The notes below the pieces were generated by a model. The model had not been told where the DNA came from. It worked only from the letters and a program-made list of their open reading frames with translations, and made no database searches. This document shows positions 147 to 60,772 of a DNA stretch of 64,000 bases, in pieces; position 1 is the first letter of the stretch, and every line of letters starts with the position of its first letter. The DNA is from Candidatus Sulfopaludibacter sp. SbA3 (GTDB taxonomy: Bacteria > Acidobacteriota > Terriglobia > Bryobacterales > Bryobacteraceae). A program made the position numbers and the translations under genes. The stretch covers positions 186,001 through 250,000 of the forward strand of contig CAMDCN010000011.1 of assembly GCA_945890485.1 (NCBI GenBank), in the 5' to 3' direction.

Positions 147-1013
147 ATGAAGAAACTGATGGGAATGGGAATGATGGCGGGGGCTATTGTCTACGGGCAA
201 GCGCCGCTACCAACGGTGAATGTTCAGCGCACGGAGATTCGTCACACCGCGATGGGCGTCGCGACGTGGGACGGCGTCGGCGAGGTCTCAATCGAGATGG
301 CGCACGTGAAGGGCGCTCCATTTTCTGGCGAGTTCGTGACGGAAACCGTGCAGCAGTTGGCGGACGGAAACCGGATCACGTCGAAGCGGAGCGAAGTGTA
401 TGCGCGGGATGGCGAAGGCCGGACACGGCGCGAGATGGGGCCAATGACGTTTATCCATGACCCCGTGGCGAAGGTGGATCTGATTCTCGAAAATCACCAG
501 AAGACGGCGCGGAAAGTCACCCTGCCGGATCTTCCTGCCGGCGCCCAAGGCAAAAACATTATGGTCTTCAACTCGGCCGGGCCTACGCTTCCTCCGGGCG
601 CCCCGGGGCAGCGGATGGCAACCTTTACCCGTGCGATTCCGGCCATGCCGGTGGGCGAAGGCGGCGGGCCGAAGTTTGAAACCAAAACCGAGCCGCTCGG
701 GAAGCGCATGATCGAAGGCACCGAGGCGGAAGGAACCCGGACGACCGTGACAATTCCCGCAGGCGCCGTGGGCAATGACCTGCCGCTGGTGACCGTCAGT
801 GAACGGTGGATGTCTACCGAGCTGAAGACGCTCGTGCTTTCGACGCGAAAGGACCCGCAGTCGGGCGAAACCACATATCGCCTCACCAACCTTCGGAAGG
901 GCGAACCGGCCCGGATGCTGTTTGAGATGCCGTCCGATTACACCCTGGCCACGGAAGAGAACCACGGCCCGGTGATGATTCAGCGGATGCGGATCGAGAA
1001 GAAGAACGACTAA
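147..1013 (+). CDS. Secreted protein of unknown function
   Basis: A 288-residue protein. The ATG at 147 is chosen over the longer open frame because TAGGAG lies 8 nt upstream and because translation from here begins with a short signal peptide (MKKLMGMGMMAGAIVYGQA, probable cleavage near residue 18-20). The mature part has no cysteine cluster, repeat or catalytic motif that I recognise. It is rich in beta-forming segments, with a proline/glycine-rich stretch near the middle (PTLPPGAPGQ). It probably acts in the periplasm or outside the cell. The downstream DUF2721 gene begins 9 nt after its stop. The coding call is firm; the function is unknown. Confidence 0.75.
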   Translation: MKKLMGMGMMAGAIVYGQAPLPTVNVQRTEIRHTAMGVATWDGVGEVSIEMAHVKGAPFSGEFVTETVQQLADGNRITSKRSEVYARDGEGRTRREMGPMTFIHDPVAKVDLILENHQKTARKVTLPDLPAGAQGKNIMVFNSAGPTLPPGAPGQRMATFTRAIPAMPVGEGGGPKFETKTEPLGKRMIEGTEAEGTRTTVTIPAGAVGNDLPLVTVSERWMSTELKTLVLSTRKDPQSGETTYRLTNLRKGEPARMLFEMPSDYTLATEENHGPVMIQRMRIEKKND

Positions 1014-1022
1014 CCTATAAGG

Positions 1023-1556
1023 GTGCTTCAGCTTCCTCCGTTTTTAAGCCATCCGGAGTTTTTTACGCTATCCGCGGGGCTGGCCGTACTCACGTCGATG
1101 ATTACGCCAGCCCTTCTGCTTTCCGCGACCGGTACGTTTATTCTCTCAACCTCCACTCGTCTCGGCCGCTGCATCGATCGCATCCGCAAGATATCCGATC
1201 TACTGGAGAACGACTTCGATCCGACGCACGAGACGAGAATCAATCCCGAGCGGAAAAAAATGCTGTTGGGGCAGGTGGAGATCCTTGGACGCCGCGCGCG
1301 TCTGCTGCAACAGGTGATGCAGGTGATGTATCTGGCGGCCGCGATGTTTGTGGCCACCAGCGTCTCCATCGGCATCGCTTCCGTGTTCGTGAAGCAACTT
1401 AGTTGGATGCCCGTCACGATGGGATTGGGCGGAGCGTGCTTTCTGGCCTATGGGACTTTCCGGTTGATCTTTGAAGCGCGAATGTCAGCTCAGGGCCTGC
1501 TGTGGGAGATCGAGTTCATGGAGCGTGGGGCGGAGAAACATCAGGAGGTAAGGTGA
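1023..1556 (+). CDS. DUF2721 family membrane protein
   Basis: A 177-residue integral membrane protein. The N-terminal part carries the family pattern TPALLLSATGTFILSTSTRL followed by LGRCIDRIRKI, which I recognise as DUF2721. Three hydrophobic segments are visible, at about 17-40, 100-122 and 129-150, with a charged linker between the first and second. The family's function is unknown. The start is GTG at 1023 with no good ribosome site. A TAACCT box at 1011-1016 lies exactly 6 nt before it, which would fit a leaderless start but may be chance, since it overlaps the previous stop. Its stop overlaps the next start (GTGA), so the two are translationally coupled. Confidence 0.8.
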   Translation: MLQLPPFLSHPEFFTLSAGLAVLTSMITPALLLSATGTFILSTSTRLGRCIDRIRKISDLLENDFDPTHETRINPERKKMLLGQVEILGRRARLLQQVMQVMYLAAAMFVATSVSIGIASVFVKQLSWMPVTMGLGGACFLAYGTFRLIFEARMSAQGLLWEIEFMERGAEKHQEVR

Positions 1557-2128
1557 CCAACGGTCCCTTGCCACTCGTACTGGAGGACTACCGCCGGCAG
1601 ATTGAAAGCATCAAGGCCCGCGTAACGGCGCTGGCGGAGCGGTTGTCCGAGGCCGAGATGCGACAACGGCCCTCCTCAACGGAGTGGAGCCCGGTGGAGA
1701 TTCTCGATCATCTGCGTGTGACCGTAGAGCAGTATCTGTTTGCCATCGACGCAGCGTTGGCCACCGCACCGAAAATTGGCGTGGCAGACCGCGAGCCAAA
1801 ATACGGCTGGGTCTGGAGGCTATTCTTGCGGACGATTGAGCCGCCGGTGAAGAAGCGCTTCCGCGCGCCGAAAGCGTTTGAGCCCGGAGTGCAGCCCGGC
1901 GTTGCCGCTACTTTGCAGGCGTTCCTGGCCGCGCACGATGCCTTAATTGAACGGATCCACCGCGCCGCCGAATACGATCTCGAACGGGTCAAGGTGGTGT
2001 CGCCCGGGAATTCGCTGTTGAAGCCGCCGCTGGGCTGCGCGATCTTGACGATGGCAGCCCACGGGCGGAGGCACTTGGCCCAGTTGCAGCGATCAGCGGG
2101 TGCGGAACTTCCCGGAGAGGGCAGCTAG
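1553..2128 (+). CDS. DinB-superfamily metal-binding protein
   Basis: A 191-residue four-helix protein of the DinB/YfiT superfamily. These bind a divalent metal through three histidines; some members are thiol transferases and most are uncharacterised. Visible histidines are in the EWSPVEILDHL segment (helix 2) and in MAAHGRRHLAQL near the C-terminus. The GTG at 1553 is preferred over an upstream ATG because AGGAGG lies 4 nt before it and it overlaps the DUF2721 stop by 4 nt. The last 36 bases are antisense to the 3' end of tex, so the two convergent genes encode protein from both strands there. The substrate cannot be predicted. Confidence 0.75.
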   Translation: MTNGPLPLVLEDYRRQIESIKARVTALAERLSEAEMRQRPSSTEWSPVEILDHLRVTVEQYLFAIDAALATAPKIGVADREPKYGWVWRLFLRTIEPPVKKRFRAPKAFEPGVQPGVAATLQAFLAAHDALIERIHRAAEYDLERVKVVSPGNSLLKPPLGCAILTMAAHGRRHLAQLQRSAGAELPGEGS

Positions 2129-4462: not shown

Positions 4463-5011
4463 CTACCTCTGGCTGAGTTCGCCAGCCGCCACGTTCGCGT
4501 TGAAATCGGCGGAGCGGTTGCGTGGAATCGTGAGCGTCTGCCAGTGGGGGCCAGCCAGGTGTTTGGCCAGAAAGATGATTTGGCCAGTATGCAGGGCATA
4601 GTGGGCCATCTGGCGGTTGATCGCCTGCATGACGGAGTGGGCTTCGCCTCGGATGGTGACGGTGCGTCCTAAGTCGGCTTCTCCGAGGGGCTCAAGAGCG
4701 CTGAAGAGGCATCTCCATCCCTCCTCCCAGGTCTCCAGCAACTCTTGACGGTTGGGAGGCGGGGCGGTGAACTCGCTATCGCGCTGCCGGTTCGGCTTTT
4801 CGCCGTCGGTGGTCAGGAAATCGGTCCAGCGGGATCGCATGTTGCCGGCCATGTGCTTGACGATGACGGCTACGGAGTTGCTTTCGGGATCGAGGGTGGC
4901 GAAGAGCTGGTCGTCGGTGAGCTGTCCAATGGCGCGTTCGGCAAAGGACTTGTATTGACGGAAGAGTGCGAGGGAATCTTCGAGGTAGGAGGTAGTGAAC
5001 TGCAGGGGCAC
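4463..5011 (-). CDS. DUF1572 / DinB-like protein
   Basis: A 182-residue protein of the DUF1572 branch of the DinB four-helix superfamily. It begins with the characteristic FTTSYLEDSLALFRQYKSF helix, followed by VIVKHMAGNM with a candidate metal-ligand histidine, and ends with INRQMAHYALHTGQIIFLA carrying two more. I chose GTG at 5011 over a TTG 30 nt upstream for two reasons. The TTG sits inside the T-run of the upstream gene's terminator, and a TACACT box lies exactly 6 nt before the GTG, as in a leaderless promoter. Together with the gene at 1553 it places a DinB-type protein on each side of tex. Substrate unknown. Confidence 0.8.
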   Translation of the reverse strand: MPLQFTTSYLEDSLALFRQYKSFAERAIGQLTDDQLFATLDPESNSVAVIVKHMAGNMRSRWTDFLTTDGEKPNRQRDSEFTAPPPNRQELLETWEEGWRCLFSALEPLGEADLGRTVTIRGEAHSVMQAINRQMAHYALHTGQIIFLAKHLAGPHWQTLTIPRNRSADFNANVAAGELSQR

Positions 5012-5017: not shown

Positions 5018-5023
5018 AGTGTA
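5018..5023 (-). promoter_or_regulatory. -10-like box TACACT, 6 nt before the GTG of the DUF1572 gene
   Basis: On the minus strand TACACT is followed by GAAGCC and then the GTG start, with no Shine-Dalgarno sequence. Transcription initiating about 7 nt after the box would begin at or next to the start codon (leaderless). No good -35 is visible. The terminator of the upstream gene ends about 17 nt before the box, so a promoter is needed here. Confidence 0.4.
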
Positions 5024-11249: not shown

Positions 11250-11255
11250 TACAAT
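11250..11255 (+). promoter_or_regulatory. Extended -10 box (TGG-TACAAT) upstream of ispG
   Basis: TACAAT preceded by TGG (an extended -10 form) ends 8 nt before the ATG at 11264. Initiation about 7 nt downstream would give a nearly leaderless ispG transcript and would exclude the alternative in-frame ATG at 11240. No Shine-Dalgarno sequence is present before either ATG. Confidence 0.42.
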
Positions 11256-16532: not shown

Positions 16533-17165
16533 ATGGCCCGGCGGATTGAAACTCTATTCGTCCCTGGCCCGGCTGGCCGCTTGGAAGCCCTTCTCGAAGA
16601 GCCCGAGGACGGCGAACCGCGATACGCCGCGCTGGTTTGCCATCCCCACCCCCAACATGGCGGGACCATGCACACGAAAGTCGTCTACCGCATCGCCCGC
16701 GGACTCCGGAAGACCGGGGCGGTCGTCCTACGTTTCAATTACCGCGGAGTGAATCTCAGTGAGGGCGTCTACGCCGACGGCGTGGGCGAGCTCGAAGATG
16801 CCCGCGCCTGCCTAGCTTTCTTGCGCGAGCGTTACCCTGATTTGCCCTTCGTCGTCGCCGGCTTCAGCTTCGGCTCGCGGATCGCTTTGCAATTGGCCGG
16901 GCAACTGCCGGAGATGCGGCGGGCGATCGCCGTGGGCTTCCCCACCAAATATCCGGACAAGAGCTACCTGGAACCCTGCGCCGTGCCGCGGACGTTTATC
17001 CACTCGACGATCGACGTCCACGGGCCGATGGTCGAACTCGAGGCGTTGGCCAAAACGCTAAGTGGGCCGCCAACGGTCGATTTCGTCGTATCGAAGGACC
17101 ACTTCTTCGTCGATGCGCTCGACGCGTTCGAACAGGCCGTCGTCCGGGCAGGCGAAACGATCTAA
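16533..17165 (+). CDS. Alpha/beta hydrolase (serine-hydrolase family)
   Basis: A 210-residue cytoplasmic alpha/beta hydrolase of the small CPHPxxGG type. Visible: LVCHPHPQHGGTMHTKV near 35-50 (oxyanion region), VLRFNYRGVNLSEGVYADG, nucleophile elbow GFSFGS with Ser112, and a late His in SKDHFFVD near 188 as the probable catalytic histidine. The substrate is not predictable; related proteins are annotated as esterases or peptidase-like. It is the last gene of the BamD-like/yajQ run. Its TAA shares 4 nt (CTAA) with the stop of the convergent HxlR gene. Confidence 0.85.
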   Translation: MARRIETLFVPGPAGRLEALLEEPEDGEPRYAALVCHPHPQHGGTMHTKVVYRIARGLRKTGAVVLRFNYRGVNLSEGVYADGVGELEDARACLAFLRERYPDLPFVVAGFSFGSRIALQLAGQLPEMRRAIAVGFPTKYPDKSYLEPCAVPRTFIHSTIDVHGPMVELEALAKTLSGPPTVDFVVSKDHFFVDALDAFEQAVVRAGETI

Positions 17166-17500
17166 CGGCTATCGTAGCTGGCGCGCGCCGCTTGCACATC
17201 CGGCGCGTGCTTCTCTGCCCAGAGCCAGATGCCGCACACCGCCTCGCTCAGGCTTTCGCCGAGCGGCGTGAGCGTGTAGTCGACCCGCGGCGGAACCGTC
17301 GCGTGGACGAACCGCGTCACCAAACCGTCGCGCTCAAGCTGACGGAGCGTTTTCGTCAGCATCTTCTGGCTGATCCCGGGCACGCGGGCCTGCAACTGGG
17401 AGAACCGGAGCTGGCCGGAGTGCAGCTCTTCGATCACGTTCAGAGTCCATTTGTCGGCGACGCGGTCGAGAGTCTCCTGGACGAGGGCCTCAGTATCCAC
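17162..17500 (-). CDS. HxlR-family transcriptional regulator
   Basis: A 112-residue winged-helix repressor/activator of the HxlR type: DRVADKWTLNVIEEL, LRFSQLQARVPGISQKMLT (recognition region), LRQLERDGLVTR, and the wing VPPRVDYTLTPLGESL. HxlR proteins often sense electrophiles or quinones and control adjacent oxidoreductases. It is divergent from the aldo/keto reductase, its probable target. GTG at 17500 is preferred over TTG at 17518 because TATACT lies exactly 6 nt upstream and would be inside the longer reading frame. No Shine-Dalgarno sequence is seen before either. Confidence 0.88.
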   Translation of the reverse strand: MDTEALVQETLDRVADKWTLNVIEELHSGQLRFSQLQARVPGISQKMLTKTLRQLERDGLVTRFVHATVPPRVDYTLTPLGESLSEAVCGIWLWAEKHAPDVQAARASYDSR

Positions 17501-17506: not shown

Positions 17507-17512
17507 AGTATA
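17507..17512 (-). promoter_or_regulatory. -10 box TATACT, 6 nt before the HxlR GTG
   Basis: Near-consensus TATACT on the minus strand, followed by TACCTT and then GTG, with no ribosome site. This arrangement predicts a leaderless transcript. No clear -35. On the opposite strand GATACT at 17554-17559 lies 6 nt before the ATG of the reductase, a one-mismatch version of the same pattern. Confidence 0.45.
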
Positions 17513-21678: not shown

Positions 21679-21684
21679 TATGTT
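21679..21684 (+). promoter_or_regulatory. -10-like TATGTT, 6 nt before the Uma2 ATG
   Basis: TATGTT followed by GAAGGG and ATG at 21691. The spacer GAAGGG also resembles a ribosome site but would be too close to this ATG. Two earlier in-frame starts (GTG 21652, ATG 21673) lack both a ribosome site and a -10 box. Confidence 0.35.
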
Positions 21685-23697: not shown

Positions 23698-23704
23698 TAT
23701 GATA
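23698..23704. promoter_or_regulatory. Symmetric -10 element (TATGATA) between divergent genes
   Basis: On the plus strand TATGAT (23698-23703) is followed by AGCGGG and the ATG of the enolase-superfamily gene (6-nt leaderless spacing). On the minus strand TATCAT (23704-23699) reads toward the beta-lactamase-fold gene and would give a leader with GGAG. Five of six bases are shared, as in bidirectional promoters. No clear -35 on either side. Confidence 0.45.
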
Positions 23705-25196: not shown

Positions 25197-26470
25197 GCAA
25201 ATACCGGCTTGGGCTCGGGCGCGGGAGCGCGCTCGGGCACCAGCAGTTGCGTGGGGTCGATCCGCGTGAAGAAAAACGCGCTGATCAACAGCATACAAGC
25301 CAACGGCAGCAACGCCTTGTTGTAATCGCCACCCATCCAGCCGACCAGATAGCCGAACAGCACGGAGCTCGAAAAGCTGCCGAGCTGGCCGGCCATATTC
25401 ATGCTGCCGCTCACCGCGCCAGAGTACTTCTTGCCGATGTCCATGCACACCGCCCACGACACCGGCAGCATACAGTCCATGCAGCCGTAGCCGAGCGCCA
25501 GGCACACAACGGCCACCTGCTTGTCGGCCACTTGGGTGCAGATGATCATGAACATCCCGGCCAATGCCAAACCGGTAGCGCCGATGACGCGGCGGCCGAA
25601 CTTCAAGCCGCGAGTTTTCACTAGGCGGTCGCTCAGCCATCCGCCGAAAAGATTGCCGCACGCCCCGACGATAAACGGCAGTGTCGACCAGAGCTTCATC
25701 TCGTCTTCACTGAAGCCGCGGCCGCGCTGCAGATAGGTGTGCAGCCAACTGAGATAAAAGTACGAACCCCAGCAATAGGTGTGGTACATCAGCAGCAGAT
25801 AGCGGAAGTTCGGCGATTTCAGCACTTCGCGCCAGGGCAGCGAATGATGCGCCTCGGCCACTTTGGGAGTGCCGATGTGGAGGAGTTCCTCTTCCGTGAT
25901 GCCGGCCTTGTCGCGCGGGTTATCGCGGAAGTAGAACCACCACACGATGCACCAAACGACGCCGATTGCGCCGAAGATGTAGAACGTAGCGCGCCAACCG
26001 TAGGCGATCTGAATTGGGACTACGATGAGCGGCGATAGGGCGCCGCCGATACGGGAGGCCATCCACGTCACGCCGACCGCGCGAGCCCGTTCTTGCGCGG
26101 GGAACCAGCGGGAGACGGTGGCGGCGATATTGGGATAGGCGCCGGCCTCGCCCGCGCCGAACAGGAACCGAACGCCGAGCAGCAAACCGTAGCTGGAAAC
26201 TGCACCGGTCATGGCGGTAAAGGCCGACCACCACAACACGATACGGGTAAGAATATTGCGCGGGCCATATTTGTCGCCCCAGACCCCGGCGGGGATCTCA
26301 AACGCGGCGTAGGAGATGGTGAAGGCGCCGACCACCCAGCCCCACATTTCGGGCGTAATCAGGAGTTCATCCTGCATGCGCTTGCCAGCCACGGAGATAC
26401 AAACGCGATCCAGGTAAGTGATGATCGACAGCATGAACAGCAAGCCGAGCATCCGATAGCGATAAGGCAT
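25193..26470 (-). CDS. MFS transporter, anion:cation symporter type
   Basis: A 425-residue 12-helix major facilitator. The N-terminal helix (LGLLFMLSIITYLDRVCIS) and loop 2-3 motif (GVWGDKYGPRN) fit the anion:cation symporter family, which includes hexuronate (ExuT) and glucarate/galactonate carriers. Other helices include LLLGVRFLFGAGEAGAYPN and the paired ATFYIFGAIGVVWCIVWWF. It probably imports sugar acids with protons. Gene order (enolase-superfamily enzyme, RHH protein, transporter) suggests a small sugar-acid locus, although the transporter is on the opposite strand. Confidence 0.87.
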   Translation of the reverse strand: MPYRYRMLGLLFMLSIITYLDRVCISVAGKRMQDELLITPEMWGWVVGAFTISYAAFEIPAGVWGDKYGPRNILTRIVLWWSAFTAMTGAVSSYGLLLGVRFLFGAGEAGAYPNIAATVSRWFPAQERARAVGVTWMASRIGGALSPLIVVPIQIAYGWRATFYIFGAIGVVWCIVWWFYFRDNPRDKAGITEEELLHIGTPKVAEAHHSLPWREVLKSPNFRYLLLMYHTYCWGSYFYLSWLHTYLQRGRGFSEDEMKLWSTLPFIVGACGNLFGGWLSDRLVKTRGLKFGRRVIGATGLALAGMFMIICTQVADKQVAVVCLALGYGCMDCMLPVSWAVCMDIGKKYSGAVSGSMNMAGQLGSFSSSVLFGYLVGWMGGDYNKALLPLACMLLISAFFFTRIDPTQLLVPERAPAPEPKPVFA

Positions 26471-26484
26471 AGGTTCGCTATTCT

Positions 26485-26512
26485 TTCACAACTTCGGGCT
26501 GCCCGGTATGAT
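26485..26512 (+). promoter_or_regulatory. Promoter of the gene at 26519 (TTCACA-16-TATGAT)
   Basis: TTCACA (26485-26490), 16-nt spacer and TATGAT (26507-26512), then 6 nt (GGGAGT) to ATG. The GGGAG is only 1 nt from the ATG, too near to serve as a ribosome site. This is among the best examples of the window's leaderless layout because a plausible -35 is also present. Confidence 0.47.
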
Positions 26513-26518
26513 GGGAGT

Positions 26519-27205
26519 ATGCAAAAGTTCGTAATTGCGTTGTTGTTTTCCGGTGTCTCGCTTTTCGCGCAGCTTGGCGCTGTGCAAATTGTCCCTGTTG
26601 AAATCGCGGTGCCCTTCGGTACGGCTGCCGGGAAGTTGGTCCTACACGACGGCTATGCTGTGTTCCTCGATGACGAGAAGCCCGAGTCTTCGTTCGCCGT
26701 CGCTCGAATGGACATGACTGGATTCGCTACCGAGGCCGGCATGATGAATGCTCTCTTCAAGAAGAACTTCCGCGATCGCGCAGGAGAAAAGAATCGTCTC
26801 AGCCTGCGGGCCGTGCGGCCAGAAGACGCCGACACCTTGCAGCGTTGGTTCTCGGCGCCTCCCACGACTCCGGCTGTGTCGAACGGCACAGGTGCGGCGA
26901 AGCCTGGCGACACCCCGATCGAATTCAAACTCGAAGTGCAGCAAAAGAAGCGCTTTGGCAAGAACCAGAAGGGACGTTTGATGCTCGCTGGCACCCAGTT
27001 GATCTTTGAATCGATCGATGATCCGAGCAGCTCCCGCCGCTGGGAGTTAAAGGAGATCAAGTCGCTCGAAAACAAGAACCCGTACGAGCTCCGCGTGGAG
27101 CCGTTCACGGGCGATGACTACCGGTTCGAGTTTGTGGGCACGCCCATTGAGGCCGCCCAGTACAAGTCGCTCGTGGATAAGGTCACCGCCGCGCGCGTCA
27201 ACTAG
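26519..27205 (+). CDS. Secreted protein with PH/GRAM-like C-terminal region
   Basis: A 228-residue protein with signal peptide MQKFVIALLFSGVSLFAQ. The middle has PFGTAAGKLVLHDGYAVFLD and a proline-rich linker. The C-terminal 95 residues (KKRFGKNQKGRLMLAGTQLI, RRWELKEIKSLENKNPYELR, DDYRFEFVG) have the strand order of a PH/GRAM-like domain (bacterial pleckstrin-type). This is a pattern judgement, not a firm family call. Function unknown; probably periplasmic. It overlaps the convergent esterase by 8 nt at the 3' ends. Leaderless-type start at ATG 26519. Confidence 0.72.
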   Translation: MQKFVIALLFSGVSLFAQLGAVQIVPVEIAVPFGTAAGKLVLHDGYAVFLDDEKPESSFAVARMDMTGFATEAGMMNALFKKNFRDRAGEKNRLSLRAVRPEDADTLQRWFSAPPTTPAVSNGTGAAKPGDTPIEFKLEVQQKKRFGKNQKGRLMLAGTQLIFESIDDPSSSRRWELKEIKSLENKNPYELRVEPFTGDDYRFEFVGTPIEAAQYKSLVDKVTAARVN

Positions 27206-28352: not shown

Positions 28353-28358
28353 ATGATA
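28353..28358 (-). promoter_or_regulatory. -10 box TATCAT, 6 nt before the esterase ATG
   Basis: Minus strand TATCAT, then CTCCGC, then ATG, with no ribosome site. The box sits just after the stop (28362-28364) of the small upstream ORF, so the esterase can be transcribed separately from cpaF. No convincing -35 is visible. Confidence 0.4.
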
Positions 28359-29929: not shown

Positions 29930-29939
29930 AGTGTACCCT
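29930..29939. promoter_or_regulatory. Overlapping -10-like boxes between cpaF and the monooxygenase-like gene
   Basis: Plus strand TACCCT (29934-29939) is 7 nt before the ATG at 29947. Minus strand TACACT (29935-29930) is 18 nt before the cpaF ATG. The two overlap by 2 nt in a 35-nt intergenic region, so both promoters must be compressed here. Confidence 0.3.
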
Positions 29940-31660: not shown

Positions 31661-34096
31661 CTAGTTCCGGTTGATGAATTCGTCGGTGTTGAGCAGGACG
31701 CGAGCGACCCCGGTCCAGGCTTCGTCCGCGGGGCGGCCTTCGGCCTTCAGAATGCCAATCTGCTTATCGAGATAGCGAGCGAGCGACGCGCGTTCCGACT
31801 CGACCGGCTTGCGGCCGAGCACGATCTCAAACATGCGGTCGATCCGGTTGGGCTCCGCGGCAGTGCGGATGGCCAAGCCGTGAGCGGCTTCAAGAAAGAC
31901 AGGGTCGTTCAGCAGGTTCAGAGCCTGCAGCGGGGTGTTTGAGGTGCGCCGGCGCGAGCAGGAGACGTTCGAATCGGGCGCGTCGAAATTAACGAGCAGT
32001 GGGTATGGCGTCGTCCGTTGATAGTGGACGTACAGCCCGCGGCGGTAGCGATCCTTGCCGGTGCTCTCGGCCCACTTCACGCTGTTGCCGTATCCCAGTT
32101 CGGCGACGCCTTTCGGCAGCGGCGGCTTGATGGACTTGCCGCCGACTTCGAGGCTGAGAATGTCGCCAGCGAACAGCGCCGCGTCGCGGATCTGTTCGGC
32201 CGGCAGGCGCAGGCGACTCTGCCGCGAAAGGAGCATGTTCTCCGGATCCTTCTCGGCGGCCTCGGGCCGGTACTTCGAACTCTGCTGATAGGTGGCCGAG
32301 GTGACGATCATCCGGTGTAGTTTCTTCACGCTCCAGCCGCTGTCGATGAAGCTGGTGGCCAAGGCATCGAGCAACTCCGGATGCGACGGCTTGTCGCCCT
32401 GCGTGCCGAAGTCTTCCGACGTCTTCACGAGCCCGCGGCCGAAATACTCCTGCCAGTAGCGGTTGACGATGACGCGCGCCGTGAGCGGGTTCTCCGGCGA
32501 AACCAGCCAACGGGCGAAACCGAGGCGGCCGGGCTCCTTCATCGCCGGAAGGATTTCGAGCGTCCCGGGTTCCACTTTGATGCCGAGGTTTTTGTAGTCG
32601 CCGCGGACGGCGATCTGCGTCACCGGGTTATCCGGATGAGCCGTAATCGTATACGCCTGGGTTAGGGCGGGGAAGCTGGCATCAAGCGCCTGCAATTTCG
32701 TGCGGAGCTCTTTGAACTTCTCCGTGAGTTCTTTGTTGTCCCGATATTGAGGGCCAGGGTTGTTTACGAAGTAGTTCACCAGCCGGTCCTGGTCGCGTTG
32801 GCTTCGTTTCGTAATTGGCGTGTGGACCACGCGCTTGGCGTGATCGAACATTGCCGACATCGACGTCACCCAGAAATCGAACTCCGGATCCTTGCCGGGG
32901 TTGGCCCAGGTTTCCCGCATCTTGTCTTCCCAGCCGGCGAGCATCGCGGGGATCTTGTACTCCTCGATCAAGGCCTGGCGCTGCTTGCGGTACTCGGGCA
33001 GAGCGCGGAGGTAGGGGCCCATCTCGCCGTTCAGCGGCGCGTCGATATCGACGTCGTCAGCGCCGTTCATGAAGGCGAAGAATTGGTAGTACTCTTTCTG
33101 GGAGATCGGGTCGTATTTGTGGTCGTGGCACTGCGCGCAACCGGCGGTGAGGCCGAGCCATGTCGTCGTAACGGTGTTCGTGCGATTAATCAGTTGCTCG
33201 TAGCGAGCCTCGGCGCGGTCGACACCAGCCTCGCGGTTCACAAGAACGTTGCGATGGAATCCGGTGGCGACGCGCTGTTCGGTGGTCGCGTTCGGCAGCA
33301 GGTCGCCGGCGATCTGTTCGACGGTGAACTGGTCAAAGGGCATGTCGGCATTGAGCGCGTTGATCACCCACTGCCGGTAGCGCCAAGCGTGGGGCCGGAC
33401 CTGATCTTTCTCGTAGCCGTCGGAGTCGGCGTAGCGGGCGAGGTCGAGCCACTGGCGGGCCCACTTCTCGCCAAAGTGCGGCGAAGCAAGGTAGGTGTCG
33501 ACGAGCCGCTCGTAAGCGTCCGGGCGGGTGTCGGCGACGAACGCCGCGACTTCGTCCGCAGTGGGAGGCAGGCCGAGCAGATCCAGCTTCAGGCGGCGGA
33601 TAAGTTGCGGCTTGGCGGCGCGGGGTGAGGGCGTCAGGCTCTCCTTCTGCAAGCGAGCGAGGACGTAGCTATCGATGGATCCGGTTTCGCGTTTCACCGG
33701 TTGGAACGCCCAATGCGAACTACCCCGGCGCTTGGCCATCGGCTTGGCCCGCTGCGGCCAAACGGCTCCGGCGTTGATCCAGGCTTGCAGGCGGCTGATC
33801 TCGTCGTTGCTCAGGCGGGGGCCGGAGGGCGGCATCACGATGCTGGATTTGTCGCTCATCACACGCCGAATGAGCTCCGACTCCGTGCCCTTGCCCGGAA
33901 TGATGACGGGGCCGCTGTAGCCGCCTTTCAGGGCGCTTTCGCCGTCGTCGAAGCGCAGGCCATTCGTCTGCACCGCGGGCCCATGGCAGCCGACACAAGA
34001 GCGCTTAAAAATGGGCTCGATGTCCTTGGCGAAATCAACCGGCGATTGGGCCATTGCCCCGGCGGCAATGGACAGGGACAGAAGCAGCCTACGCAT
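31661..34096 (-). CDS. Secreted DUF1549/DUF1553 protein with CxxCH heme motif (pair 1)
   Basis: An 811-residue secreted protein. After the signal peptide comes a PSD1 (planctomycete cytochrome c-like) region with CVGCH at 34-38. DUF1549 follows, with LGLTAGCAQCHDHKYDPISQ holding a second CxxCH. The C-terminal DUF1553 has LTARVIVNRYWQEYFGRGLV, SRRRTSNTPLQALNLLNDP and LARYLDKQIGILKAEG. Two heme-binding motifs suggest periplasmic electron transfer; the complex with DUF1501 is known only from conserved pairing. TAGAAT lies exactly 6 nt before the ATG. The neighbouring gene at 34138 is divergent. Confidence 0.92.
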   Translation of the reverse strand: MRRLLLSLSIAAGAMAQSPVDFAKDIEPIFKRSCVGCHGPAVQTNGLRFDDGESALKGGYSGPVIIPGKGTESELIRRVMSDKSSIVMPPSGPRLSNDEISRLQAWINAGAVWPQRAKPMAKRRGSSHWAFQPVKRETGSIDSYVLARLQKESLTPSPRAAKPQLIRRLKLDLLGLPPTADEVAAFVADTRPDAYERLVDTYLASPHFGEKWARQWLDLARYADSDGYEKDQVRPHAWRYRQWVINALNADMPFDQFTVEQIAGDLLPNATTEQRVATGFHRNVLVNREAGVDRAEARYEQLINRTNTVTTTWLGLTAGCAQCHDHKYDPISQKEYYQFFAFMNGADDVDIDAPLNGEMGPYLRALPEYRKQRQALIEEYKIPAMLAGWEDKMRETWANPGKDPEFDFWVTSMSAMFDHAKRVVHTPITKRSQRDQDRLVNYFVNNPGPQYRDNKELTEKFKELRTKLQALDASFPALTQAYTITAHPDNPVTQIAVRGDYKNLGIKVEPGTLEILPAMKEPGRLGFARWLVSPENPLTARVIVNRYWQEYFGRGLVKTSEDFGTQGDKPSHPELLDALATSFIDSGWSVKKLHRMIVTSATYQQSSKYRPEAAEKDPENMLLSRQSRLRLPAEQIRDAALFAGDILSLEVGGKSIKPPLPKGVAELGYGNSVKWAESTGKDRYRRGLYVHYQRTTPYPLLVNFDAPDSNVSCSRRRTSNTPLQALNLLNDPVFLEAAHGLAIRTAAEPNRIDRMFEIVLGRKPVESERASLARYLDKQIGILKAEGRPADEAWTGVARVLLNTDEFINRN

Positions 34097-34101: not shown

Positions 34102-34108
34102 TATTCTA
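34102..34108. promoter_or_regulatory. Overlapping -10 boxes for two divergent genes
   Basis: Plus-strand TATTCT (34102-34107) and minus-strand TAGAAT (34108-34103) share five bases. The minus box is followed by AGGGGT and the ATG of the DUF1553 gene (6 nt). The plus box is 21-30 nt before the ATGs of the gene at 34138. Confidence 0.4.
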
Positions 34109-41012: not shown

Positions 41013-43736
41013 TCATGGTAACCCTACTGTATTGGAGTCCACGCCGTCGGCAGTAAGCGTCAGCAACTCACCAGGAGTGCCGCCGCGGATGTTGATTTGC
41101 TGCAGGCCGATGAACCCGGGCGCGAGGCCGGAGAAGAGCACTTCGCCGGCGCGGTTGCCAATCCGGGCCGTGACGGCGGCGGAGCCGAACCCGGTTCCGT
41201 AGATCTCGTAGATCGTCTCGCCGCGAGGGATCGCGGCGGCCAGGCCGGAAGCCGCGTCAAAGAAGATGCCGGGTTGGGCGGCGAGCACCGGGACTGTGAG
41301 CTCCGTCGTGCCGGCTGGATTGATGGCGGCGATCTCCGCGCTCGATCCGGCGAGGCCGGTGGGCACCGCGAAGTTCGCTTGCGTTTCGTTACTAAAGAAG
41401 ACGACGGCCGGGAAGCCGTTAACGGTGATCTCGGCTCCGCGCAGGTTGGCTCCGAAAGCCGTCGCAATGCCGCCCGGGACGATACCAGGACGGAAAGAAG
41501 CGGCATTGACCACGCCGTTGGCCGCGAGGGCGGGCATCCGGGCGACGCTGGCGGAGATGCCGGTGCCCGGTACGGTAATCTGTTCGACGCCGGGCGGGAA
41601 GGCGGCCACACCGTTCGCGTCGGTGGTGACGACGGTGTCGCCGGCGGCGAGCCGGAGGCCGGGATAGGGCAGTTCGTTGATGTCCTGGGCGCGGAAGACG
41701 GGTCCATCACCTGGTTCATCGACCGGTACGACGCTGAGGCCGGCGCCATCGGCGGGCAACACCTGGATGCGGGCTTCGACCGGCGCGTACTCCGTGGGGC
41801 CTTCAGCACGGAGCAGGTCGACGCCGGAGCGGCCGGCGGCAATCTCGACCGGGACACTGGTTTGACCGGCGGGGATGACGACACTGCCGGGCACAGTGAC
41901 GAGGCCGGACTCACTGCGAAGGGCGACCGTGACGGCGGTGGGGCTCGGACGATCGATCGAAAGCGAGGCGGTGGCGGCGCGTCCGGCCAGCAGGCCGGCG
42001 GCCGGTTCGACGTTCAGGCGCAGGTTGCGGCGGAAGGAGGTATCGAGGCTGGCGCGGCCACCGGAATAGCGGGTCCATGCCGCTTCGAGTTCGCGGCGAT
42101 AGAGGTCGACCTTGGCGAGTTCAGCAGCGGTGGGTGTGGTGCCGGTAGGCACGATGAGAACGAAGCCGATGCGGTAACGGCGCTGCTCGACCGTGTGATC
42201 AGGGGTCCGGCGGCCCTCGGCGGCTATGATCTCTTCCACTCCAATGTTGCGGCGGGTGCCGTCGAAGGTCATTCCCACGCGGGGAGCCGTCAGGGCGGGG
42301 GAGAGTCCGGAGTTCTGGACATAAAAGGTGGGGGGCACTTCGTTGGCGGGGCGCAGGCCCATCAGGTATTGATCAAGAGGAGAGAAGCCTTCGACCGTGG
42401 CTACGGTGCGGAAGCGGGGGCTGACTCCTTCACCGGCATCTTCGATCCGATTGCCTTCGAGGAGAGAGGCTTCGGAGTTGAACGTAAAGGCCCAGTGGAA
42501 GCCTTGGCGGCCAAGCATGGGTCGGCTGTTGCCCTCACGGTTCGAGGCGAAGGCGAGGAACAGGTGGCCCGCTTCATGCGCGACCACGGTGAGCCCGGTG
42601 TCGCCGGTGCCGGCGCGGGAAGGCATCAAGGCATTGGGATCGTCCGGGTACTGCGAGAGAGGCCCCATGTTCAAGACCGCTTGCAGGCGGTTAGGGGAAC
42701 CATACTCGCGTCCGGTATCCAGCAGGAAGTCGCCAATTCCTTTGCGGCGCGCGCGGACGCTGACTTGAAAGGCGATGGTGCCGCCGCCCGGGGAGACGCC
42801 CCCCGTATTGAAGAACGCGAAATAGTCAAAGGCATCGTCATGGTTCTCGTAGATCTTTTGTGCGGCCGTGACGAGATCGACGGAGGTGGTATCGCCGAAG
42901 CTTTCGCCGACGGTACCGGTGAAGATACGTTCGCTGCCAGTGTTGAAGCTGACGAGCGCGGAGGAGCCCTGCAGACCGCCGGGCGAGATGCCAACGACGG
43001 ACTCGGCGAGATTGACCTGGCTCCAGGCGAAGGCGATTGCGCCGTCAGGCGTCAGCGTGATTTGAAAAGTCTGCGGCTGGCCGAAGCCGAAGTCGCTGTA
43101 CTCGCGGACGCGCAGCCAAGTGACGCTGAAGCGCGTGGCGGAGCGAAAGATGTTGACGCCGTCGCCGTTGGCGGAGGGATCCAGGTCAGCGAACAAACCC
43201 GCGATGCGGGGGAGGCCGGAGTTAAGGCGCCCGAAGCTGCGGGCGCTCGTATCGACGTCGCCGCCACCGAAGCTCAGGTTGCCGTCGGAGTTGACCGAGA
43301 TTTTGGTGTACTCGGCGCCGTAGAAACGAAAGGGGAACGGAAGGTCGAGTTCGCGGGTGTCGTCGTCGCCGAGTTCGGCGATGCGATCTCCGACGGCAGC
43401 CGTGTTGATAGTGGCGGCGGCGGAGGTGAAACGGTAGCCGCTGTCGCTCGGAGTGAAGGTGACGCCGCGGTTGAGCAGGTTAAACGGGTTGCGCCGTGCG
43501 ACCACGCCGTCGGCATCGTCGAGCACCAGAATGTTTCCTTCGATCCGTGAAGCCGGCCGACCGGTGGCCGCCTTGAACTTGCCTCCGCGTATCGATTTGC
43601 GGTGGAGGTCGAGTTCCTCGTAAGTCTGGCCGGGATAAGTGCCGCACCAGGAAGTGTTGGATTTCGCTTCGGCGAGCCCGGCGAAAAACGGAACCAGCAG
43701 CGCGAGACTTGCGTAACGAAATATCGAGGGGCTCAT
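41013..43736 (-). CDS. Secreted metalloprotease-like protein with nidogen-like and Solibacter C-terminal domains
   Basis: A 907-residue protein. Signal peptide to about residue 24. A nidogen-like beta domain at about 115-280 (PFPFRFYGAEYTKISVNSDG, AGLFADLDPS). A putative zinc-protease segment with HEAGH at 387-391 (VVAHEAGHLFLAF); the third ligand is not obvious. A Calx-beta-like strand domain at about 640-720 (RPSPTAVTVALRSESGLVTV). The C-terminal 200 residues are the Ig-like domain characteristic of Solibacter-group proteins (NAASFRPGIVPGGIATAFG ... EIYGTGFGSAAVTARIG, PGFIGLQQINI). ATG at 43736 chosen: a TACAAT box ends 5 nt before it. The role may be extracellular adhesion or polymer attack. 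Confidence 0.8.
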   Translation of the reverse strand: MSPSIFRYASLALLVPFFAGLAEAKSNTSWCGTYPGQTYEELDLHRKSIRGGKFKAATGRPASRIEGNILVLDDADGVVARRNPFNLLNRGVTFTPSDSGYRFTSAAATINTAAVGDRIAELGDDDTRELDLPFPFRFYGAEYTKISVNSDGNLSFGGGDVDTSARSFGRLNSGLPRIAGLFADLDPSANGDGVNIFRSATRFSVTWLRVREYSDFGFGQPQTFQITLTPDGAIAFAWSQVNLAESVVGISPGGLQGSSALVSFNTGSERIFTGTVGESFGDTTSVDLVTAAQKIYENHDDAFDYFAFFNTGGVSPGGGTIAFQVSVRARRKGIGDFLLDTGREYGSPNRLQAVLNMGPLSQYPDDPNALMPSRAGTGDTGLTVVAHEAGHLFLAFASNREGNSRPMLGRQGFHWAFTFNSEASLLEGNRIEDAGEGVSPRFRTVATVEGFSPLDQYLMGLRPANEVPPTFYVQNSGLSPALTAPRVGMTFDGTRRNIGVEEIIAAEGRRTPDHTVEQRRYRIGFVLIVPTGTTPTAAELAKVDLYRRELEAAWTRYSGGRASLDTSFRRNLRLNVEPAAGLLAGRAATASLSIDRPSPTAVTVALRSESGLVTVPGSVVIPAGQTSVPVEIAAGRSGVDLLRAEGPTEYAPVEARIQVLPADGAGLSVVPVDEPGDGPVFRAQDINELPYPGLRLAAGDTVVTTDANGVAAFPPGVEQITVPGTGISASVARMPALAANGVVNAASFRPGIVPGGIATAFGANLRGAEITVNGFPAVVFFSNETQANFAVPTGLAGSSAEIAAINPAGTTELTVPVLAAQPGIFFDAASGLAAAIPRGETIYEIYGTGFGSAAVTARIGNRAGEVLFSGLAPGFIGLQQINIRGGTPGELLTLTADGVDSNTVGLP

Positions 43737-43741: not shown

Positions 43742-43755
43742 ATTGTAAAATACAA
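43742..43755. promoter_or_regulatory. Overlapping divergent -10 boxes in a TTGTA-AAA-TACAA inverted repeat
   Basis: Inverted repeat TTGTA AAA TACAA (43743-43755) in the 39-nt gap. Minus-strand TACAAT (43747-43742) ends 5 nt before the metalloprotease ATG. Plus-strand TAAAAT (43746-43751) overlaps it by 2 nt and precedes the AIM24 gene, which has TGAGGA 9 nt before its ATG. A single regulator or polymerase footprint could control both genes. Confidence 0.4.
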
Positions 43756-48506: not shown

Positions 48507-49594
48507 CGGCGGTTCACTCCTTTCGTGACGCGGTGCAGGAAGCCCTTCACGATCTCGGTCTGCTCTTCCACTTCGACGAGGAAGGCGTCGTGGCCGTACT
48601 TCGACGTGAGTTCGATATAGGCGACGTCCTGGTTGCGGCGGCGCAGGGCGTTGACCACCTCCTGCGATTGATAGGACGGGTAAAGCCAATCGGAGGTGAA
48701 GCTGATGACGAGGAACTTGGTCTTCGATCGTTCGAGCACGGCGGTGAGCGATTGCTGGCCGCCGGCGAGATCGAACAGGTCCATCGCTTTCGTGATGTAG
48801 AGATACGAGTTCGCGTCAAAGCGATCGACGAACTGGCTGCCGCGGTAGCGGAGATAGCTTTCGACTTCGAAGATGCCTTGATCCTCGCGCTGGCGGCGGC
48901 CGAACTTCTGGCGCATCGACTCATCGCTCATGTAGGTGATGTGGCCCACCATGCGGGCGACGGAGAGGCCGCGGCCGGGTAGTTTGCCGCCGTAGTAGTT
49001 GCCGTTGTTCCAGTCAGGATCGGCCATGATCGCCTGGCGGCCGACTTCGTTGAAGGCGATCTGCTGGGCGCTATGGCGCGGCGTGGTGGCGATGGGAATG
49101 GCCGAGGCGACGCGGTCGGGATAGCGGGCCGCCCATTCGAGCACCTGCATGCCGCCCATGGAGCCGCCGGCGACGCAGAGCAACCGCTCGATGCCGAGGG
49201 CTGCGATCAGCTTGGCCTGCAGGCGCACCATGTCGCCGATGGTGATGACCGGGAAGGTCATGCCGAAGACTTCGCCGGTGGCGGGGTCGATGGAGCCGGG
49301 CCCGGTGGTGCCGCGGCAGCCGCCAAGCACGTTCGAGCAGATGACAAAATGCTGATCGGTATCGAAGCCCTTGTCCGGGCCGATCATGCTGTCCCACCAG
49401 CCTTTTTGCTGGGTTTGCGGGTCAATTCCGGCCGCGTGGGCGTCACCCGAAAAGGCGTGCGTGATGAGGATGGCGTTCGAACGCTCGGCGTTCAACGTTC
49501 CGTATGTTTGGTAAGCGACGTCGACTGGAGCGAGGGTGACCCCACAATCAAGCTCCAAGGAATCGAATCGCCTCGTCTGCGTGGAAACGACCAT
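48503..49594 (-). CDS. metX: Homoserine O-acyltransferase
   Basis: A 363-residue alpha/beta hydrolase-fold enzyme that acylates homoserine in methionine synthesis. Landmarks: VAYQTYGTLNAERSNAILI, NVLGGCRGTTGPGSIDPATG, nucleophile VAGGSMGGMQVLEW with Ser145, and His in KYGHDAFLVE near 344. The sequence fits the acetyl-CoA type, though some MetX proteins prefer succinyl-CoA. No SAM riboswitch fits: the divergent gene begins 26 nt upstream. Expression probably uses TATCCT in the shared promoter. Confidence 0.94.
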   Translation of the reverse strand: MVVSTQTRRFDSLELDCGVTLAPVDVAYQTYGTLNAERSNAILITHAFSGDAHAAGIDPQTQQKGWWDSMIGPDKGFDTDQHFVICSNVLGGCRGTTGPGSIDPATGEVFGMTFPVITIGDMVRLQAKLIAALGIERLLCVAGGSMGGMQVLEWAARYPDRVASAIPIATTPRHSAQQIAFNEVGRQAIMADPDWNNGNYYGGKLPGRGLSVARMVGHITYMSDESMRQKFGRRQREDQGIFEVESYLRYRGSQFVDRFDANSYLYITKAMDLFDLAGGQQSLTAVLERSKTKFLVISFTSDWLYPSYQSQEVVNALRRRNQDVAYIELTSKYGHDAFLVEVEEQTEIVKGFLHRVTKGVNRR

Positions 49595-49607
49595 GACTGG
49601 AATCCCT

Positions 49608-49614
49608 TAGGATA
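49608..49614. promoter_or_regulatory. Symmetric -10 element (TAGGATA) between metX and the ceramidase-like gene
   Basis: Plus TAGGAT (49608-49613) is followed by 7 nt and the ATG of the ceramidase-like gene. Minus TATCCT (49614-49609) lies 14 nt before the metX ATG, and AAGGG sits in that leader. Five bases are shared by the two boxes. The gap is only 26 nt. Confidence 0.42.
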
Positions 49615-49620
49615 ACAGGC

Positions 49621-50964
49621 ATGGTGCGATTGGCTCTCTTCGTGATGTTGGCGTCCGCTGCGGCGGCGCAGTGGAAGGTGGGACGGGCGGAGGTGGACAT
49701 CACGCCGCCGGCAAAAATGCCGATGGCGGGATACTACTACGTCCGGCTGAACGAAGGGTTGCATGACGCGCTGCATGCGAAGGCGATGGTCGTCGAACAG
49801 GCGGGCGTGCGTGTGGCGCTGGTGGCCGTCGACTACGTGCAGATTCCGGGGCAGTTCGTCGAGGAAGCGCGCAAGTTGATCACGGCGCGGACCGGCATTC
49901 CGGCCACGCATGTGATGATCTCGGCGACGCACTCGCACACGGGGCCGGAGTTGGGGACGCGGCTGCGCAATGTGGAGCCGGAGATCGATGCGTTGGCGAA
50001 GGGCTTCTGGCAGAAGATTCCGGGGCTGATTGCGGAAAGCGTGGAGAAGGCCAATGCAGCGCTGGCGCCGGCCGAAATCAGCGTTGGCGTAGGGAAGGAG
50101 GATTCGATCAGCTTCATTCGGCGCTTCCGGATGATCGACGGAACGACGGGTTGGAACCCAGGCAAACGGAATCCGAAGATTGACAAGGTGCTGGGGACGA
50201 TTGACCCGGATGTGGCCGTCGTTGCCGCGGGTACGGGCGCTTACGTCAACTTTGCGCTGCACCTGGACACGGTGGGCGGCGCGGAGTTTTCAGCCGACTA
50301 TGCCTATGCGTTAAGCGAGAACATGAAGCGGGTGAAGGGTCCTGGCTACTCGACGCTCTTCACGATTGGCTGCGCGGGGAACATCAACCATATTGATGTC
50401 TCCCACAATCGGCCACAGAAGGGCCACGGCGAGGCGGCGCGGATCGGGACGGTGCTGGCCGCGGCGGTGCTGAAGACGATGGAGCGGATGACGCCGGTGG
50501 CGGTGCAGCCGGTGCGGGCTTCGACGCGGCTAGTGAATTTGGCGCCCGCACCGTACCCGGCGGAGGACGTGGAGCGGGCCAAGGCGATCATCGCGAACTA
50601 CGGGAAGCAGAACGCGAATCCGTTTTATGACCAGGTGAACGCGTTCAAGGTGATGGATATTGTGGAGCGCGGGGGGAAGCCGTTTCCGGCCGAGGTGCAG
50701 GTGATTGCTCTGGGCAAGTCGGTGGCGTGGGTGGGCCTGCCGGGCGAGATATTCAATGAGCATGGCCGGGCGATCAAGCTGGCGTCGCCGTTTCCGGTGA
50801 CGATTGTGGCCGAGCTGGCGAACGGGAACTTGGGTTACGTACCGGACCGGAAGGCGTACACCGAAGGCGCCTACGAGGTGATCTCGTCGCGGCTGGCGGC
50901 CGGGGGCGGGGAGGCGATGGTCGCCTCCGCCGTTGAGCAGTTGGTGGCGTTGTTCAAGGACTAG
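49621..50964 (+). CDS. Secreted neutral/alkaline ceramidase-like protein
   Basis: A 447-residue secreted protein (signal MVRLALFVMLASAAAAQ). The start of the mature part, WKVGRAEVDITPPAKMPMAGY, and the metal-site block VMISATHSHTGPELG match the N-terminal domain of neutral/alkaline (non-lysosomal) ceramidase. It has GNINHIDVSHN with further candidate ligands. It lacks the C-terminal beta domain of full-length ceramidases. Many bacterial relatives have unknown activity. Upstream TAGGAT at 7 nt, no ribosome site. Its stop shares CTAG with the convergent DUF1501. Confidence 0.82.
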   Translation: MVRLALFVMLASAAAAQWKVGRAEVDITPPAKMPMAGYYYVRLNEGLHDALHAKAMVVEQAGVRVALVAVDYVQIPGQFVEEARKLITARTGIPATHVMISATHSHTGPELGTRLRNVEPEIDALAKGFWQKIPGLIAESVEKANAALAPAEISVGVGKEDSISFIRRFRMIDGTTGWNPGKRNPKIDKVLGTIDPDVAVVAAGTGAYVNFALHLDTVGGAEFSADYAYALSENMKRVKGPGYSTLFTIGCAGNINHIDVSHNRPQKGHGEAARIGTVLAAAVLKTMERMTPVAVQPVRASTRLVNLAPAPYPAEDVERAKAIIANYGKQNANPFYDQVNAFKVMDIVERGGKPFPAEVQVIALGKSVAWVGLPGEIFNEHGRAIKLASPFPVTIVAELANGNLGYVPDRKAYTEGAYEVISSRLAAGGGEAMVASAVEQLVALFKD

Positions 50965-55979: not shown

Positions 55980-59195
<3,216 letters not shown>

Positions 59196-59356: not shown

Positions 59357-59427
59357 CTAGCGTCTACCGAAAATCGGTTTGCGATGGTGGTTCGGTCGGT
59401 CACGCCGCGCCTATACGTTGAAGTCTG

Positions 59428-59456: not shown

Positions 59457-59478
59457 TTCACCGTAGGAGGGTGGATTT

Positions 59479-59802: not shown

Positions 59803-59811
59803 CCGGGTCGG

Positions 59812-59837
59812 TGGCGGGAGGTGCAAACCTCCCGCCA
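59812..59837. terminator. Bidirectional hairpin with GCAA tetraloop between convergent genes
   Basis: Perfect 11-bp stem TGGCGGGAGGT / ACCTCCCGCCA closing a GCAA (GNRA) tetraloop, 10 nt after the stop of the 59479 gene and 4 nt before the stop of the 59841 gene. No T-run on either side, so it is a hairpin of uncertain termination strength that would form in both transcripts. Confidence 0.55.
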
Positions 59838-59840
59838 TGG

Positions 59841-60395: not shown

Positions 60396-60446
60396 TCTCG
60401 CGTCCCCCCAACTTCATAGCCTGGACGTAATGGGGGCACTGTGAGC

Positions 60447-60737
60447 CTAGCGGCAGGCAGGACTGCCCGCGTAGCTGGGCATATTGTGGGTCGTCCGAGA
60501 TACGTGCCGAGGCATCTTTGCATCGATGCCGGCGTCGACGGGAATGATGACGATGTGGGAACACGCGGCGGTGCTGGCAACGAGGCGGGCGGGCGCAGGT
60601 CGAGGGATAATCAAGCTTTGCAGTACCGGCTTCTTTGCCGGCAGTACTGGCCGGACGAGGGTAACGTGCCCGGGTAGAGGTTTGCTGTCGGCCAACAAGG
60701 GGAGCGTGAGGAGAAGCGATGCGAGGATGTACCGCAT
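60447..60737 (-). CDS. Small secreted protein of unknown function
   Basis: A 96-residue protein with a signal peptide (MRYILASLLLTLPLLADS). The mature part has a proline-rich stretch (VLPAKKPVLQSLIIPRPAP) and two Cys (about 59 and near the end) in a C-terminal segment CSHIVIIPVDAGIDAKM. It resembles small acidobacterial secreted proteins of the same general form that I have seen but cannot name. A TTGACG-17-TAGTCT promoter ends 6 nt before the ATG, so it appears leaderless. Confidence 0.65.
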   Translation of the reverse strand: MRYILASLLLTLPLLADSKPLPGHVTLVRPVLPAKKPVLQSLIIPRPAPARLVASTAACSHIVIIPVDAGIDAKMPRHVSRTTHNMPSYAGSPACR

Positions 60738-60743
60738 GGCCTT

Positions 60744-60772
60744 AGACTATGCATCTTGCCCCAAAACGTCAA
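60744..60772 (-). promoter_or_regulatory. Promoter of the small secreted protein (TTGACG-17-TAGTCT)
   Basis: Minus strand: TTGACG (60772-60767), 17-nt spacer, TAGTCT (60749-60744), then AAGGCC and ATG. This is the best-supported leaderless promoter in the window since both hexamers and ideal spacing are present. A CAAAAC/GTTTTG inverted repeat overlaps the -35. Confidence 0.5.

What the first reader, a model, noticed from the sequence alone, without database searches (positions are those of the whole stretch)
1011..60749. Recurring TANNNT-N6-start layout: candidate leaderless transcription as a major mode
Many genes at the head of a transcript lack a Shine-Dalgarno sequence and instead carry a -10-like TANNNT whose last base is 5-8 nt (usually exactly 6) before ATG or GTG. 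Exact 6-nt cases: TACACT/5011 GTG, TATACT/17500 GTG, TATGTT/21691, TATGAT/23710, TATGAT/26519, TATCAT/28346, TAGAAT/34096, TAGTCT/60737, and more doubtfully TAACCT/1023. Near cases: TACAAT/43736 (5), TACCCT/29947 and TAGGAT/49621 (7), TACAAT/11264 (8). Since initiation falls about 7 nt after a -10, these transcripts would begin at the start codon. With A and T each near 0.2, a fixed TANNNT match is expected at roughly 1 position in 125, so this density is unlikely by chance. Three of these starts (5011, 17500, 21691) were partly chosen because of the box, which biases the count. Genes inside operons mostly use overlaps or AGGAG sites instead. Leaderless mRNAs are known in actinobacteria and Deinococcus; I am not aware of this being described for this lineage.
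Basis: partly seen in the sequence, partly recalled or inferred. Interest (0 to 1): 0.75.

Follow-up and report, generated by a model that had tools for sequence, protein, structure and literature searches.

The report
Leaderless gene starts in an acidobacterium
Many genes of this soil-type bacterium appear to begin transcription right at the start codon; the pattern looks real and conserved, but it was already predicted for its phylum.

Summary
In 828 kb of the window's 7.1 Mb genome, TANNNT lies exactly 6 nt before 30 of 635 starts predicted without using the box, against 4.6 per offset in background. Counts step from 7 at spacing 5 to 30 at 6 and tail off to 9, as expected if transcription begins at or just before the start codon. 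E. coli shows no excess; Deinococcus deserti P2 does. Box and spacing are kept in same-genus relatives. Leaderless or near-leaderless sigma70-type promoters explain this best; no RNA data were available. "Major mode" is too strong: about 10% of head genes by excess, 20% by a mixture fit with decoys at 3-9%. Novelty fails at phylum level: Zheng et al. 2011 predicted TANNNT-led leaderless genes in 3 of 3 Acidobacteria genomes, 9.7-19.4%. Cited starts 21691 and 1023 are weak, and the box-blind caller chose only 6 of the 13 cited starts. No -35 enrichment was found.

The parts
5018..5023 (-). TACACT, 6 nt before GTG 5011 (gene 4463-5011, DUF1572/DinB-like)
   Evidence: Present; in G009 the box is TAAGCT at the same spacing and the start is ATG; Pfam. 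Box-blind caller preferred TTG 5041.
17507..17512 (-). TATACT, 6 nt before GTG 17500 (gene 17162-17500, HxlR-type regulator)
   Evidence: Present; kept in G001 and G006, start ATG in G006. Box-blind caller chose 17500 but TTG 17518.
21679..21684 (+). TATGTT, 6 nt before ATG 21691 (gene to 22275, Uma2); weak case
   Evidence: Present, but coding score prefers GTG 21652 and the whole upstream stretch is conserved.
23698..23703 (+). TATGAT, 6 nt before ATG 23710 (gene to 24828, galactonate-dehydratase-like, below NCBIfam cut-offs)
   Evidence: Present; box and spacing kept in 7 of 7 relatives; start chosen box-blind.
26507..26512 (+). TATGAT, 6 nt before ATG 26519 (gene to 27205, no Pfam family)
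   Evidence: Present; kept in G009 and G001; start chosen box-blind.
26485..26490 (+). TTCACA, 16 nt upstream of the TATGAT box: -35-like, 5 of 6 to TTGACA
   Evidence: best match 5; in G009 an 8-nt insertion lies between the two elements, so the pairing is not conserved there.
28353..28358 (-). TATCAT, 6 nt before ATG 28346 (gene 27198-28346, alpha/beta hydrolase)
   Evidence: Present; TATGAT or TAGAAT at the same spacing in 4 of 4 relatives; start chosen box-blind.
34103..34108 (-). TAGAAT, 6 nt before ATG 34096 (gene 31661-34096, PSCyt1/PSCyt2/PSD1 protein)
   Evidence: Present; kept in 4 of 4 relatives. Box-blind caller preferred 34054, inside what looks by eye like a signal peptide.
60744..60749 (-). 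TAGTCT, 6 nt before ATG 60737 (gene 60447-60737, 96 aa, signal-peptide-like by eye)
   Evidence: Present; TAGACT in G009 and TACCCT in G017 at the same spacing although flanks are unlike (the G017 match begins at residue 24, its start is extrapolated). Gene not called by my finder.
60767..60772 (-). TTGACG, 17 nt upstream of the TAGTCT box: -35-like, 5 of 6 to TTGACA
   Evidence: Read from the sequence printed; not seen at that place in G009.
1011..1016 (+). TAACCT, 6 nt before GTG 1023 (gene to 1556, DUF2721); doubtful, TAA is the stop codon of the preceding ORF 18-1013
   Evidence: kept in G009 and G017, but a stop codon there would be kept anyway; box-blind caller preferred 1098.
43742..43747 (-). 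TACAAT, 5 nt before ATG 43736 (gene 41013-43736)
   Evidence: Present; kept in G009, G016, G017; absent at a 31%-identity partial hit in G006; start chosen box-blind.
29934..29939 (+). TACCCT, 7 nt before ATG 29947 (gene to 30243, ABM family)
   Evidence: Present; kept in 4 of 4 relatives; start chosen box-blind.
49608..49613 (+). TAGGAT, 7 nt before ATG 49621 (gene to 50964, ceramidase-like)
   Evidence: Present; kept in 3 of 3 relatives; start chosen box-blind.
11250..11255 (+). TACAAT, 8 nt before ATG 11264 (gene to 12490, IspG/GcpE)
   Evidence: Present; the upstream alignment was cut from the output, so its conservation was not seen; box-blind caller preferred GTG 11291.

Best explanation
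The boxes are -10 elements of housekeeping-sigma (sigma70-type) promoters placed so that RNA polymerase starts at the A or G of the start codon, or 1-3 nt before it. The resulting mRNAs are leaderless or nearly so and would be translated by ribosomes that recognise the 5'-terminal start codon without a Shine-Dalgarno contact. Shown here: the motif, its preferred spacing with a sharp lower edge at 6, its conservation in same-genus relatives, the Shine-Dalgarno deficit and the lack of excess in E. coli. Inferred: the transcription start itself and translation of leaderless mRNA. In this genome it serves a minority of genes, roughly a tenth to a fifth of genes at the head of a transcript.
For: 30 of 635 box-blind starts have TANNNT at spacing 6 against 4.6 per offset background; against an expectation from base composition at each position it is 30 against 10.8, and TANNNT ranks first of 64 XY...Z patterns there. 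Counts at spacings 4-9 are 4, 7, 30, 20, 14, 15. At the fourth box position, G is rarer in boxes at spacings 6-7 than in control boxes (6 of 50 against 72 of 249, P = 0.013). Boxes at spacing 6-9 are retained in same-genus relatives in 18 of 20 comparisons against 51 of 87 for boxes at 20 or more (P = 0.009; comparisons not independent), 25 of 40 at 10-19 and 6 of 12 at 0-5. Head or gap genes with a box at 6-9 have a Shine-Dalgarno 4-mer in 2 of 46 cases against 29 of 129 with a box elsewhere and 28 of 145 with none. D. deserti plasmid P2 gives a like profile, E. coli no excess. G009 and G017, in the stretch syntenic with the window, show it too.
Against: No RNA data. No -35 enrichment over control boxes (28 head/gap cases at spacing 6: mean best match 2.39 of 6, against 2.40 for 264 at spacings 21-60 and 2.32 for 1865 inside genes; matches of 5 or more in 7%, 2% and 1%). 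The fifth box position shows no G deficit (P = 0.56). The box overlaps the Shine-Dalgarno region, so that deficit is partly built in. Starts are predictions, and the box-blind caller chose only 6 of the 13 cited ones. Genes classed as inner also carry the box, which a simple head-of-transcript model does not predict. Outside the genus, single genomes such as G028 and G084 show no significant peak at 6.
Confidence: 0.85

Rival explanations
1. The boxes are chance AT-rich hexamers, picked because starts were chosen to fit.
Against: The spacing-6 excess survives box-blind starts, equal treatment of all spacings and the rest of the sampled genome (35 against 10.1).
Confidence: 0.03
2. The signal is a translation feature: an AT-rich, unstructured stretch or non-Shine-Dalgarno ribosome site ahead of the start codon in leadered mRNAs.
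For: A-richness rises modestly near starts; box counts stay above background to spacing 9.
Against: Composition by position predicts 10.8, not 30, at spacing 6; the specific TA...T pattern and the step between 5 and 6 are promoter-like; seven decoy motifs fit 3-9% of head genes against 20%, though in E. coli and some small samples the same fit gives decoys as much as or more than TANNNT.
Confidence: 0.08
3. Some boxes are coincidences with stop codons (TAA/TAG) of the preceding gene.
For: 1023 is such a case; among 310 inner genes 7 of 32 boxes at spacings 6-9 begin at the previous stop codon.
Against: Head and gap genes cannot show it by their definition (neighbour on the other strand or at least 60 nt away) and still have 46 boxes at 6-9 against 12.6 expected; 25 boxes remain at inner genes against about 5.9 expected.
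Confidence: 0.04

Closest known systems
TA-led leaderless genes of bacteria (Zheng et al. 2011, PMC3160421; passages read)
   Same: Consensus TANNNT, about 12 nt before the start codon, high-GC genomes with uninformative middle bases; Acidobacteria listed with 3 of 3 genomes, average 13.3% (9.7-19.4%).
   Different: That study used RefSeq genomes of 2010; the passages seen do not name the three. Here the unit is a Bryobacterales-like genome, with orthologue conservation added.
Leaderless mRNAs of Deinococcus deserti (de Groot et al. 2014; seen only as a title in the reference list of PMC9581028; paper not held)
   Same: Like box and spacing profile with the same pipeline on 150 kb of plasmid P2.
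   Different: By its title based on RNA sequencing; here no RNA data. Another phylum.
Leaderless class of GeneMarkS-2 (Lomsadze et al. 2018; not held; as described in passages of PMC9581028)
   Different: Whether Acidobacteriota are in that class was not seen.

Membership tests
TA-led leaderless bacterial genes | TANNNT enriched with first T about 12 nt upstream of the start | tested here: met
   30 of 635 at spacing 6 (first T at -12) against 4.6 background
TA-led leaderless bacterial genes | Box-led genes lack a Shine-Dalgarno | tested here: met
   2 of 46 against 29 of 129; partly built in because the box overlaps the region
TA-led leaderless bacterial genes | Confined to single genes and operon-proximal genes | tested here: inconclusive
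   Excess 10.4% of 320 head/gap genes but also 8.6% of 315 inner genes, part of it from stop codons
TA-led leaderless bacterial genes | Transcription starts at the start codon | not testable with these tools
   No RNA data held
sigma70-type promoter | -10 element with conserved T1, A2, T6 | tested here: met
   TA...T ranks first of 64 patterns at that place; boxes at 6-9 retained in 18 of 20 comparisons
sigma70-type promoter | -35 element TTGACA at 16-18 nt | tested here: not met
   No enrichment over control boxes as a set; 5-of-6 matches at two cited starts, 26519 and 60737 (sequence)

The most novel reading that the evidence does not exclude
Besides transcript heads, genes lying less than 60 nt behind a co-directional neighbour also carry start-codon-abutting -10 boxes: 25 boxes at spacings 6-9 among 310 inner genes after removing stop-codon coincidences, about 5.9 expected. 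This lineage may run leaderless sub-operon transcripts from promoters inside the preceding gene.
Probability: 0.45. Interest if true: 0.4.

Novelty: new member of a known kind. Interest (0 to 1): 0.3.

Why it matters
Acidobacteriota are abundant in soil (general knowledge), and the listings of my literature searches (open-licence papers only) showed no TSS map for them. If these genes are leaderless, gene finders that lean on Shine-Dalgarno sites will misplace starts, and antibiotics or stresses that spare leaderless translation would act unevenly on this group. The result extends a 2011 prediction to this genus and adds conservation; it does not open a new kind of mechanism.

Tried and rejected
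A -35 search over boxes at each spacing gave no enrichment. The 16S 3' end could not be checked: no 16S rRNA match was found in the assembly. Rfam found nothing in the window at gathering scores, so no known riboswitch leader was seen. A whole-genome pattern count was considered and not run, because coding-frame effects on TANNNT inside genes (internal starts) would blur it. The mixture fit is poorly calibrated where A+T is higher or samples are small: in E. coli head genes decoys reach 0.13-0.24 against 0.08 for TANNNT, and in G024, G084 and G050 decoys fit about as well as TANNNT. Outside the genus, pooled over six genomes at 200 kb each, spacings 6-9 give 49 against 20.9 in head/gap genes, but over all genes of single genomes the peak at 6 ranged from clear (G066, G093) to not significant (G028, G084, G050). 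Rows dropped: 6 of 641 called genes too near a stretch end, pairs with upstream identity over 0.93 or under 0.45, protein identity under 65%, a match starting after residue 15, coverage under 60%, or too near a contig end. Papers PMC3160421, PMC10783764 and PMC9581028 were seen as passages only; all others as search listings.

Full report
Origin. The window is bases 186001-250000 of contig C11 of a 7.1 Mb, 35-contig, 97% complete genome. The lineage is therefore taken as Acidobacteriota, near Solibacter.

Observation. 13 of 13 cited boxes are present with the stated spacing. To avoid choosing starts by the box, I wrote a gene finder that uses coding statistics and start-codon priors only. It was run on 828 kb of the same genome: C11:1-250000 with the window, and parts of C7, C3, C6, C1, C2, C4 and C5. 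It called 641 genes, of which 635 were used. It chose 6 of the 13 cited starts (23710, 26519, 28346, 29947, 43736, 49621), other starts for six, and did not call the 60737 gene.

Enrichment. TANNNT at spacings 0-9 before the 635 starts occurs 4, 4, 5, 5, 4, 7, 30, 20, 14, 15 times; the mean over spacings 20-73 is 4.6. Poisson P at spacing 6 is 4e-15 against that background and 1e-6 against an expectation from base composition at each position (10.75). Of 64 patterns of the form XY...Z at that place, TA...T ranks first. Internal in-frame ATG and GTG codons show no peak at 6: 5 of 3640 and 9 of 5559, against 10.1 and 15.6 per offset. The step between 5 and 6 fits transcription starting no earlier than the start codon.

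In the window. Giving each gene any plausible 5' ATG or GTG, 8 of 57 genes have the box at spacing 6 against a mean of 1.0 at spacings 12-40; the remaining 584 genes give 35 against 10.1. By that count the window is denser than the rest (odds ratio 2.6, Fisher P = 0.045); with box-blind starts it is 3 of 31 against 15 of 289 head/gap genes.

Conservation. In the visible alignments, TANNNT at the same spacing is kept in 36 of 37 relative rows over 12 of the 13 loci; the miss is a 31%-identity partial hit of G006 to the 43736 protein, and the thirteenth locus, 11264, was cut from the output. Rows of close relatives are not independent. The interior often changes while T, A and T stay: TATCAT, TATGAT and TAGAAT at 28346; TAGTCT, TAGACT and TACCCT at 60737; TACACT and TAAGCT at 5011, where the start changes from GTG to ATG. 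In a test from box-blind starts over the syntenic region, boxes at spacing 6-9 were retained in 18 of 20 comparisons, at 20 or more in 51 of 87 (P = 0.009), at 10-19 in 25 of 40 and at 0-5 in 6 of 12.

Shine-Dalgarno. Head or gap genes show a Shine-Dalgarno 4-mer in 18%, inner genes in 35%, against 9% in a control stretch. Head or gap genes with the box at 6-9 have one in 2 of 46, with a box elsewhere in 29 of 129, with no box in 28 of 145.

Controls and relatives. The same pipeline on 150 kb of D. deserti plasmid P2 gives 9 boxes at spacings 6-9 against 2.1 expected in 64 head/gap genes; on 150 kb of E. coli K-12 it gives 3 against 6.4 in 72. Excess in head/gap genes: own genome 10.4% of 320; same-genus G009 19.0% of 35 and G017 18.3% of 39 (both syntenic with the window, so not separate samples of the genome); family G024 4.8% of 119; order G028 6.0% of 70; class G084 1.8% of 94; same phylum G093 10.9% of 74, G066 4.3% of 100, G050 4.6% of 91. 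Pooled over the six genomes outside the genus: 49 against 20.9; singly, over all genes, the peak at 6 is clear in G066 and G093, marginal in G024 (P = 0.036) and not significant in G084, G050 and G028. A mixture fit puts 20% of own head genes in the box class against 3-9% for seven decoy motifs, and 15% of inner genes against 1-9%; in E. coli and several small samples decoys fit as well or better, so those single estimates are not reliable.

Against a tidy story. No -35 enrichment was found; 26519 and 60737 have 5-of-6 matches, but at neither is the pairing kept in G009. Genes within 60 nt of a co-directional neighbour also show an excess (33 boxes at 315 genes, which include 5 edge genes, against 5.9); 7 of 32 boxes at 310 inner genes start on the previous stop codon, the rest do not. 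1023 is such a stop-codon case, and 21691 may not be the true start. The fourth box position shows a G deficit (P = 0.013), the fifth does not (P = 0.56).

Prior knowledge. Zheng et al. 2011 (PMC3160421, passages) describe TANNNT about 12 nt upstream of starts as the mark of bacterial leaderless genes and list Acidobacteria with 3 of 3 genomes, 13.3% on average (9.7-19.4%). My estimate of roughly 10-20% of head genes is of the same order. [quoted passage not shown] I saw no TSS map of an acidobacterium in the listings of searches, which cover open-licence papers only.

Verdict.

Noticed in passing
49594-49621: Divergent starts 26 nt apart share a near-palindromic stretch: TAGGAT on + lies 7 nt before ATG 49621 and TATCCT on - lies 14 nt before ATG 49594, a possible bidirectional promoter (sequence).
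   Followed up: no
inner genes of the sampled 828 kb: Start-abutting TANNNT boxes are also enriched at genes close behind a co-directional neighbour, hinting at promoters inside operons.
   Followed up: partly
60447-60737 (-): A 96-codon gene missed by the coding-score finder, with matches at 57-58% identity in G009 and G017 and no Pfam family.
   Followed up: partly
26470-26519: Divergent gene pair separated by only 48 nt, so both promoters must lie in or near that gap.
   Followed up: no
G000 genome: No 16S rRNA match in a 97% complete assembly, so the anti-Shine-Dalgarno could not be read.
   Followed up: no
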